A stretch of 41,473 bases of DNA from Bacillota bacterium. Its GTDB lineage: Bacteria; Bacillota; Desulfitobacteriia; Desulfitobacteriales; JAJXUE01. Below the pieces are notes generated by a model. The model did no database searches. It had not been told where the DNA came from and worked only from the letters and a program-made list of their open reading frames with translations. Positions within the stretch are counted from its first letter, which is position 1. Every line of letters starts with the position of its first letter. Of this stretch, positions 4,825 through 6,512 are shown in pieces. The stretch lies in contig JAJXUE010000026.1 of assembly GCA_021783135.1 (NCBI GenBank), positions 1-41,473 of the forward strand. The letters run 5' to 3'. Both the position numbers and the translations under genes were made by a program.

Positions 4825-5457
4825 ATGCCGCCAACCCCTGTGTATATTTATCATATAACGTCGATTAGTAATTTACCGTCTATTTTGGCTTCAGGCAGAC
4901 TGAATTCAAAATCATTAATAGATCTGCATTCTGTTCGATATACGAACATTGCTTATGACCACATACAAGATCGCTGAAGTAATACTAACGTACCTTGTGG
5001 GCCCCGCGGTAATTTACATAATTACGTTCCGTTTTATTTTGCTCCGCGTTCACCTATGCTTTACACAATTAATAGGGGAAATGTACGCGGATTTACAGGC
5101 GGTCAAAGGTCAATAATATATTGTGTCTCTACTGTTGAAGCGGTAGATGGTGTAAGGCCATGGGTTTTTACGGATGGCCACGGGACCATGAGGATTACTC
5201 AATTTTTTAGTGATCTTAACGACCTTGATGAAGTTGATTGGGATGTTATGGAATCTCAGTATTGGTACGACACGGAGATCCACCCTGATCGCAGGCGCCG
5301 CCGACAAGCTGAATTTTTAGTGTATGAATATTTTCCTATGAATTTGATTAGCCATATAGGGGTATATGACAGTGCAATCTCAGAAAGTATAATAACTATT
5401 ACGCGTAATGCAGGATATAATATCCCAGTATGGCAACGCCCAAACTGGGATTACTGA
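4825..5457 (+). pseudogene. darT: DarT DNA ADP-ribosyltransferase toxin, interrupted by in-frame TGA
   Basis: From ATG 4825 (GAGG at 4812-4815) one frame carries the whole DarT family signature: PVYIYHITSISNLPSIL, then IAYDHIQDR, then NYVPFYFAPRSPMLY, a VFTDGHG segment and QAEFLVYEYFP with the conserved Glu at position 163. Total length is 210 codons, normal for DarT. Codon 51 (4975-4977) is TGA in the motif that reads IQxRR in the family. A single C-to-T change in CGA would create it. Reading resumes in the same frame, so there is no indel. DarT transfers ADP-ribose from NAD onto thymidine bases in single-stranded DNA. As read here only a 50-aa fragment would be made, unless translation restarts internally (for example ATG 5056) or the TGA is read through. 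Its stop overlaps the darG ribosome binding site. Confidence 0.9.
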
Positions 5458-5471
5458 GGAGGTGTCCGCTA

Positions 5472-6512
5472 GTGATTGAATTGAGAAATGGAAATCTTTT
5501 AAAAGCTGATGCAGAAGCCTTAGTAAATACGGTTAATTGTGTGGGTGTAATGGGTAAAGGGATTGCACTGCAATTTAAGCAGGCATACCCTGACAATTTT
5601 AAAGAATATGCAAGGGCCTGCAAAAGCAAGCTTGTTGTTCCAGGTTCCATGTTTACGGTTCAAGTGGGCGGCATGCTGGCTAACCCAAGATATATTATTA
5701 ACTTTCCAACCAAAAGGCATTGGAAAGGGAATTCTAGGATTGAAGATATTGAATCCGGGTTAAAGGCACTTATCGCTGAAGTGAAACGTCTTGGAATTAG
5801 ATCCATTGCCGTGCCGCCATTAGGGTGTGGAAATGGTGGCTTGGTTTGGGATGAGGTCAGACCCAAAATAGTAATGGCTTTTGAAGACTTACCTAATGTT
5901 AATTTATTTCTCTATGAGCCAACAGGAAACCCGCCGTCTGAGGAGATAAAAGTCGCAACTAAAAAAAATTTAACCAACGCCAGAGCGTTACTGTTAGAAT
6001 TGATGAATCGGTACACTATTCCTGGGTATACTATGACTCTTTTGGTGGTTCAAAAACTTGCTTATTTTTTACAAGAAGCTGGAGAGCCACTGAAGTTAAA
6101 TTTTGAAAAAGGCATTTACGGGCCTTACGCTGAGAATTTGAATTTTGTGTTGAAGGCTATGGAGGGACATTATACTCGGGGTTTGGGTGATGGCAGCCGT
6201 AAAAAAGATGCCCCTATTTACCTTTTGCCAAAGGCTGCGTCTGAAGCATCTGAGTTTTTAATGGGTAGAGAAGAGTCTCTGCAACGTCTCGACCTGGTTA
6301 CGGATATTATAGCCGGCTTTGAGTCTCCCTATGGTATGGAACTGCTTGCTACTGTTGATTGGGTTATGAAGCAAAACCCTGAAACAGCTAACGATTTTAC
6401 CAAAGTTAAGGACCAAGTGTATATTTGGAATAAGCGTAAGCGTGATATTTTCAAGGAAAATCACATTTCGATCGCTTGGAAACATCTTAGCAATATTAAG
6501 GTTGATATTTGA
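5472..6512 (+). CDS. darG: DarG macrodomain antitoxin (ADP-ribosyl-thymidine glycohydrolase)
   Basis: 346 aa from GTG 5472, chosen because GGAGG (5458-5462, overlapping the darT stop) lies 9 nt upstream and the macrodomain begins here (IELRNGNLLK). An ATG in frame at 5430 lies inside darT and lacks a comparable site. Residues 1 to about 155 form the macrodomain: GNLLKADAEALVNTVNCVG with Asn22, GVMGKGIALQFK, FPTKRHWK with Lys81 at the position reported as catalytic in DarG, and IAVPPLGCGNGGL. Residues about 180-340 (VQKLAYFLQEAGEPLKLNFE...GIYGPYAENL) resemble the SocA/DUF4065 (Panacea) fold and probably bind the toxin. It removes ADP-ribose from DNA and neutralises DarT. Coupled to darT in one operon. 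Confidence 0.92.
   Translation: MIELRNGNLLKADAEALVNTVNCVGVMGKGIALQFKQAYPDNFKEYARACKSKLVVPGSMFTVQVGGMLANPRYIINFPTKRHWKGNSRIEDIESGLKALIAEVKRLGIRSIAVPPLGCGNGGLVWDEVRPKIVMAFEDLPNVNLFLYEPTGNPPSEEIKVATKKNLTNARALLLELMNRYTIPGYTMTLLVVQKLAYFLQEAGEPLKLNFEKGIYGPYAENLNFVLKAMEGHYTRGLGDGSRKKDAPIYLLPKAASEASEFLMGREESLQRLDLVTDIIAGFESPYGMELLATVDWVMKQNPETANDFTKVKDQVYIWNKRKRDIFKENHISIAWKHLSNIKVDI

What the first reader, a model, noticed from the sequence alone, without database searches (positions are those of the whole stretch)
4825..6512. DarTG locus with the toxin stopped by a single in-frame TGA at codon 51
The reading frame 4825-5457 is a full-length DarT with all family blocks, broken only by TGA at 4975-4977 inside IQDR-stop-SNTNVP. 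The family reads IQxRR there. From memory, the second Arg aligns with Arg51 of the Thermus aquaticus toxin, reported as needed for activity. CGA to TGA is one transition. The rest, including Glu163, is undamaged and darG is intact, so the lesion looks recent. Options: a toxin lost in this strain with the antitoxin kept, a mutation selected during culture or cloning, a sequencing error, or stop-codon readthrough giving trace toxin.
Basis: partly seen in the sequence, partly recalled or inferred. Interest (0 to 1): 0.85.

Follow-up and report, generated by a model that had tools for sequence, protein, structure and literature searches.

The report
Toxin-antitoxin pair with a dead toxin
A bacterial DNA-modifying toxin gene has very probably been knocked out by one stop codon at a key catalytic position while its antidote gene stays intact, and similar losses are seen in other bacteria, so this is a real but fairly ordinary kind of decay.

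Summary
Frame 4825-5457 reads as a full-length DarT with one in-frame TGA at codon 51. darG beside it is intact, most likely starting at GTG 5472. Codon 51 aligns with catalytic Arg51 of Thermus aquaticus DarT; the column is Arg in 60 of 60 reference relatives. The 25 other columns conserved at 90% or more are all kept. In a neutral-drift simulation a frame this clean has probability 0.44 at 1% and 0.04 at 4% divergence, so the lesion looks recent.

The genome encodes selenocysteine machinery (tRNA-SeC, SelB) and a formate-dehydrogenase-type gene with an in-frame TGA. darT lacks the strong hairpin seen there, and no reference relative has Cys at that column, so recoding is unlikely.

The pattern recurs: of 80 DarG loci, 58 have an intact darT, 16 a broken one (3 on weak evidence), 5 none within 3 kb upstream, 1 at a contig edge; 8 of 24 non-MAG records are broken.

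Verdict: a DarTG2-like locus, probably acquired horizontally, with a recently killed toxin and a retained antitoxin. Sequencing error or culture selection cannot be excluded without reads or sister genomes.

The parts
4825..5457 (+). darT pseudogene: 210-codon DarT frame interrupted by one TGA
   Evidence: PF14487, NF048013 and PADLOC DarT on both pieces; 3 solved DarT-type sequences matched
4975..4977 (+). in-frame TGA at codon 51, column of catalytic Arg51
   Evidence: column Arg in 60 of 60 reference relatives; aligned to the second Arg of IQERR in 7omv
4825..4974 (+). 50-residue N-terminal piece, the only product expected without readthrough
   Evidence: DarT E 4e-7
5056..5457 (+). longest internal reading frame after the stop (ATG, 133 aa), lacking the first 77 codons of the frame
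   Evidence: expression not tested
5458..5463 (+). GGAGGT, likely ribosome-binding site of darG
   Evidence: read; inference
5472..6512 (+). darG, intact, 346 aa from GTG: macro domain plus C-terminal DarT-binding-type domain
   Evidence: PF01661 1.8e-25 on the 5430 frame; NF048014 464.8 bits; PADLOC DarG 449 bits; 5m31 and 7yk3_B matches

Best explanation
A DarTG2-like toxin-antitoxin pair, probably acquired horizontally, in which the toxin gene has recently been killed by a nonsense mutation while the antitoxin gene remains intact. Shown: one stop in an otherwise clean DarT frame, at an invariant catalytic column; intact darG; darTG G+C of 0.406 against 0.49 for the window; a same-family genome keeps the neighbouring genes without DarTG. 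Inferred: translation ends after 50 residues and no active ADP-ribosyltransferase is made; the cell tolerates this because darG is harmless alone; darG is at present an orphan that could still strip ADP-ribose from DNA and neutralise a foreign DarT2, or will decay in turn.
For: Single lesion and DarT identity. Codon 51 = catalytic Arg51, 60 of 60 Arg. The 25 other columns conserved at 90% or more are kept. darT is no more diverged relative to darG than in intact loci: rank 31 of 58. Clean-frame probability 0.44 at 1%, 0.21 at 2%, 0.042 at 4% neutral divergence. Recurrence: 16 broken of 74 relatives that still carry darT, at differing places, while 79 of 80 darG are uninterrupted. In a phylum sample 4 of 21 genomes with DarT look broken, this one included. 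G+C. Synteny. Antitoxin alone did not impair E. coli growth in the T. aquaticus system (PMC5179494, passages).
Against: No reads and no second genome of the genus, so an error or a culture mutation is not excluded. No product was measured. The recurrence count comes from the 80 best-scoring darG hits, which favours intact darG. The genome does encode selenocysteine machinery.
Confidence: 0.8

Rival explanations
1. Sequencing or assembly error, or strain mixture: the living cell has an intact darT.
For: Only one base-level lesion in the frame, and everything else looks selected. No coverage data are available.
Against: 22 long open frames of the window (11,944 codons, my sum) run uninterrupted, so the contig is not error-ridden; I did not test each against homologues. 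Broken darT beside darG is common (16 of 74), so a real lesion has a far higher prior than a substitution error in this one gene (typical error rates recalled, not measured).
Confidence: 0.12
2. A nonsense mutant selected during isolation, culture or cloning, absent from the wild population.
For: The cognate T. aquaticus toxin was hard to clone because of toxicity (PMC5179494, passages); the lesion looks recent.
Against: darG is present and intact, so a working toxin should be tolerated. Broken darT also occurs in MAGs, which were not cultured (8 of 56 MAG records broken).
Confidence: 0.08
3. UGA at codon 51 is read through as selenocysteine, giving a regulated or altered DarT.
For: The genome encodes tRNA-SeC (68.9 bits; anticodon TCA) and SelB (382 bits) side by side and a molybdopterin oxidoreductase of formate-dehydrogenase type with in-frame TGA.
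Against: The positive control has a 6-bp stem with a GGUCU loop, -10.1 kcal/mol, matched by 8 of 1000 shuffles; darT has at best -3.2, matched by 88 of 1000 shuffles and by 41 of 187 darT codon starts. The downstream fold is weaker than most shuffles (169 of 200 at least as stable). The column is Arg in 60 of 60 and never Cys. Limit: 8 of 323 darG codon starts reach the control's energy by chance, so the scan alone is not specific, and a non-standard SECIS is not excluded.
Confidence: 0.02
4. Ordinary low-level UGA misreading gives trace DarT, held in check by darG.
For: The frame is otherwise clean; such misreading is generally known (recalled). Nothing here measures it.
Against: The residue inserted would have to serve as catalytic Arg51, mutation of which abolishes toxicity in T. 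aquaticus DarT (PMC9967889, passages). Readthrough product would therefore probably be inactive.
Confidence: 0.05

Closest known systems
DarTG (DarTG2-like), Thermus aquaticus DarT 7omv and DarG 5m31
   Same: DarT 1.2e-45 across residues 3-195; DarG macro domain 1.3e-51; gene order darT-darG; catalytic Glu, Tyr71, Met78 and His119 positions kept
   Different: darT interrupted by a stop at the Arg51 codon, so no complete toxin is encoded in one standard frame
DarTG complex 7yk3
   Same: DarT 1.3e-24; the C-terminal part of DarG matches 7yk3_B, residues 188-336, E 3.9e-24, the part that binds the toxin (role recalled)
   Different: toxin broken here
Broken darT beside intact darG in other genomes (L006, L023, L030, L036, L043, L080 by stop; L003, L004, L016, L046 by frameshift)
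   Same: single-lesion loss of the toxin with darG uninterrupted
   Different: stops at other columns (45, 52, 86, 139, 172, 177) or frameshifts; none at codon 51

Membership tests
DarTG toxin-antitoxin system | DarT (PF14487) domain | tested here: met
   by sequence, in two pieces on either side of the stop
DarTG toxin-antitoxin system | one uninterrupted toxin reading frame | tested here: not met
   TGA at codon 51; a member by descent, not shown to be a working system
DarTG toxin-antitoxin system | catalytic Arg51 | tested here: not met
   stop codon at that column
DarTG toxin-antitoxin system | catalytic Glu (T. aquaticus Glu160) and other listed active-site residues | tested here: met
   Glu163 aligns to the E160A position of 7omv; Tyr71, Met78, His119 kept; residue roles from PMC9967889 passages
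DarTG toxin-antitoxin system | adjacent DarG with macro domain and C-terminal domain | tested here: met
   NF048014 464.8 bits over residues 2-339; catalytic Lys in FPTK invariant in 15 aligned DarG
DarTG toxin-antitoxin system | reversible ADP-ribosylation of ssDNA | not testable with these tools
   needs biochemistry
Selenoprotein | Sec machinery in the genome | tested here: met
   tRNA-SeC, SelB, in-frame TGA in a molybdopterin oxidoreductase
Selenoprotein | SECIS hairpin just after the UGA | tested here: not met
   -3.2 against -10.1 kcal/mol in the positive control; z +0.92; the simple scan does not exclude a non-standard element
Selenoprotein | Cys or Sec at the same column in relatives | tested here: not met
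   Arg in 60 of 60 in the MAFFT alignment

The most novel reading that the evidence does not exclude
darG is kept after darT is lost because it has a use of its own: an orphan DNA de-ADP-ribosylase and DarT2 inhibitor that immunises the cell against DarT2 carried by incoming phages or mobile elements (anti-addiction), so that toxin loss with antitoxin retention is a recurrent outcome rather than mere decay.
Probability: 0.2. Interest if true: 0.55.

Novelty: new member of a known kind. Interest (0 to 1): 0.3.

Why it matters
It shows by sequence that chromosomal DarTG loci often lose the toxin while darG stays intact: 16 of 74 loci, against 0 of 19 on viral contigs (Fisher p 0.036; the two sets were sampled differently). 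That makes it testable whether orphan DarG protects cells from DarT-bearing mobile elements. It also warns that presence of a darTG annotation or a DarT profile hit does not mean a working defence system.

Tried and rejected
Selenocysteine recoding was tested with a positive control in the same genome and rejected as unlikely. A shared recoded position across relatives was rejected: the stops of 7 other loci fall at columns 45, 52, 86, 139, 147, 172 and 177 and include TGA, TAA and TAG. A sister strain was sought: the genus holds one genome, the other 2 genomes of the family have no DarT, 4 of the other 72 genomes of the order have a DarT match but none is close enough to date the lesion, and plasmids gave 11 records, none covering 80% of the query. 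The phage collection was not searched with search_dna_similar. Old, relaxed decay was rejected by the darT-darG identity comparison and the drift simulation. Chance was not a concern given the profile E-values.

A pairwise-BLAST codon count put Arg at column 51 in 55 of 60, the other 5 (Leu 4, Met 1) I attribute to gap placement. The 60-row reference set holds 57 of the 58 intact loci plus L083, L084 and L082, the last later classed as broken at its C-terminus. In one search G249's darG match was flagged with one TAA near a contig start, whereas my scan found a 347-residue uninterrupted piece. The promoter-terminator scan found 9 promoter-like sites against 5.6 (sd 2.7) expected and nothing I rely on. 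Rfam found no family in the window. Literature: one paper held darT, darG, pseudogene and toxin-antitoxin together, and its pseudogene passage is unrelated; a looser search gave nothing relevant among the 12 listed. So I found no report of recurrent darT loss, in those searches only.

Full report
Observation. The window is a whole contig of a 2.71-Mb genome in 67 contigs, the only held genome of its genus. The frame 4825-5457 translates as a 210-residue DarT interrupted once, by TGA at 4975-4977, codon 51. Pfam, PADLOC and NCBIfam place both pieces in DarT, and a six-frame search finds this as the only DarT of the genome, with one TGA inside. darG follows; its most likely start is GTG 5472, 8 bases after a GGAGGT and 14 bases after the darT stop codon, because 53 of 80 homologous loci align from residue 14 or 15 of the longer frame. 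It is uninterrupted and matches DarG NF048014 at 464.8 bits. The part lists macro domain and C-terminal domain; the latter matches chain B of 7yk3.

Where the stop falls. Against T. aquaticus DarT (7omv, E 1.2e-45) codon 51 aligns with the second Arg of IQERR, chain position 52; the catalytic Glu163 aligns with chain position 161, which reads Ala there and fits the E160A mutant, so chain numbers are one above the published ones and codon 51 is Arg51 (my count). Arg51 is described as needed for NAD+ polarisation and proton abstraction, and its mutation as abolishing toxicity (PMC9967889, passages only). In a MAFFT alignment of 60 reference relatives the column is Arg in 60 of 60. That the stop hits a key residue adds nothing to its effect, since any early stop would remove the active site; 26 columns are this conserved, so the coincidence is mild.

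Age. The 25 other columns conserved at 90% or more are all kept. Under a simple neutral simulation (substitutions only, no indels) the chance of seeing such a clean frame is 0.85 at 0.2%, 0.44 at 1%, 0.21 at 2%, 0.042 at 4% and 0.017 at 5% divergence. Relative to darG, the window's darT is not unusually diverged: rank 31 of 58. The lesion is therefore recent, or the frame is still in use.

Is the frame still in use? The genome encodes tRNA-SeC (68.9 bits, anticodon TCA by ARAGORN) next to SelB (382 bits). A second place over the tRNA-Sec cut-off is a tRNA-Ser by ARAGORN. One of three molybdopterin oxidoreductases has an in-frame TGA in a context typical of formate dehydrogenase (name recalled), followed by a 6-bp stem with a GGUCU loop, -10.1 kcal/mol. 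This is a positive control. At the darT TGA the same scan finds at best -3.2 kcal/mol, reached by 88 of 1000 shuffles and by 41 of 187 darT codon starts; the control value is reached by 0 of 187 darT and 8 of 323 darG codon starts. A free fold of 60 bases is no better than shuffles (z +0.92). With Arg, never Cys, at the column in relatives, selenocysteine is unlikely. Trace misreading cannot be excluded but would have to supply Arg-like chemistry.

Recurrence. The best 80 of at least 580 DarG loci were scanned with a DarT model over stop-to-stop pieces. darT is intact in 58; interrupted by a stop in 6 (L006, L023, L030, L036, L043, L080); frameshifted or split in 7 (L003, L004, L016, L031, L046, L050, L082, of which L031, L050 and L082 are weak); decayed or truncated in 3 (L018, L047, L078); not found in the roughly 3 kb held upstream in 5 (L010, L017, L044, L065, L071); and at a contig edge in 1 (L014). 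In the 24 records not titled MAG, 8 are broken; in the 56 MAG records, 8 are broken and 5 lack darT. Stops fall at different columns, so the losses are independent. In the same 80 loci darG has an internal stop in 1 (L047), but loci were chosen by darG score. In a sample of 398 genomes of the phylum, drawn without regard to darG, 21 have DarT; 4 look broken (this one, G425, G295, G194), G115 and G437 are uncertain, and G195 has a DarG match without a DarT match. On viral contigs, 19 of 20 full-length DarG loci have darT in one piece and the twentieth starts at a contig end. Broken 16 of 74 against 0 of 19 gives Fisher p 0.036; broken or missing 21 of 79 against 0 of 19 gives p 0.010. The two samples differ in how they were drawn.

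Origin. darT and darG have G+C 0.406, the flanking genes 0.478 and 0.476, the window 0.49. Genome G047 of the same family keeps the neighbouring phosphoesterase (two copies, 63 and 62%) and LytR gene (66%) on one contig but has no DarT or DarG match; between its phosphoesterase copies lie a HepT-like/nucleotidyltransferase pair and an IS200-like transposase gene. So this spot takes up toxin-antitoxin modules.

Mechanism. In a working DarTG, DarT ADP-ribosylates ssDNA, stalling replication, and DarG removes the mark and binds DarT (PMC5179494 passages; PMC10305079 passages). DarTG can block phage replication (PMC11481870, passages). Here translation most likely ends after residue 50; the longest downstream frame starts at ATG 5056 and lacks the first 77 codons of the frame. 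No active toxin is expected. darG has its own ribosome-binding site and alone is harmless in the T. aquaticus system, so the mutation is tolerated. Whether darG is selected afterwards is open; chromosomal antitoxins that block plasmid toxins are known as anti-addiction (PMC10305079, passages).

Verdict. The DarTG2 label is from the macro-type antitoxin and recalled nomenclature. Interest is moderate to low; the recurrent loss is the more useful result.

Noticed in passing
L176-L179, L181-L189, L191-L196 (viral contigs): 19 of 39 viral-contig loci encode only the macro-domain half of DarG (38-63% identity in the listing, lowest values included) with no DarT in the DNA held, save a weak 21.6-bit hit in L193; possible phage counter-defence against DarT2.
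   Followed up: partly
L210:1370-2840 (G047:C85): Between two phosphoesterase copies in a same-family genome, near the spot where the window has DarTG, lie a HepT-like/nucleotidyltransferase pair and an IS200-like transposase: a toxin-antitoxin hot spot.
   Followed up: partly
L155 (G000:C53:21372-22643): Molybdopterin oxidoreductase with in-frame TGA and a GGUCU-loop hairpin, a likely selenoprotein of formate-dehydrogenase type in the window's genome.
   Followed up: yes
L047: Both darT and darG carry stops, a DarTG locus in later decay.
   Followed up: no
5366-5393 +: Sigma-70-like site, 11 of 12 matches, inside the 3' end of darT and upstream of darG; could let darG be transcribed alone, but the number of such sites is near chance.
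   Followed up: no
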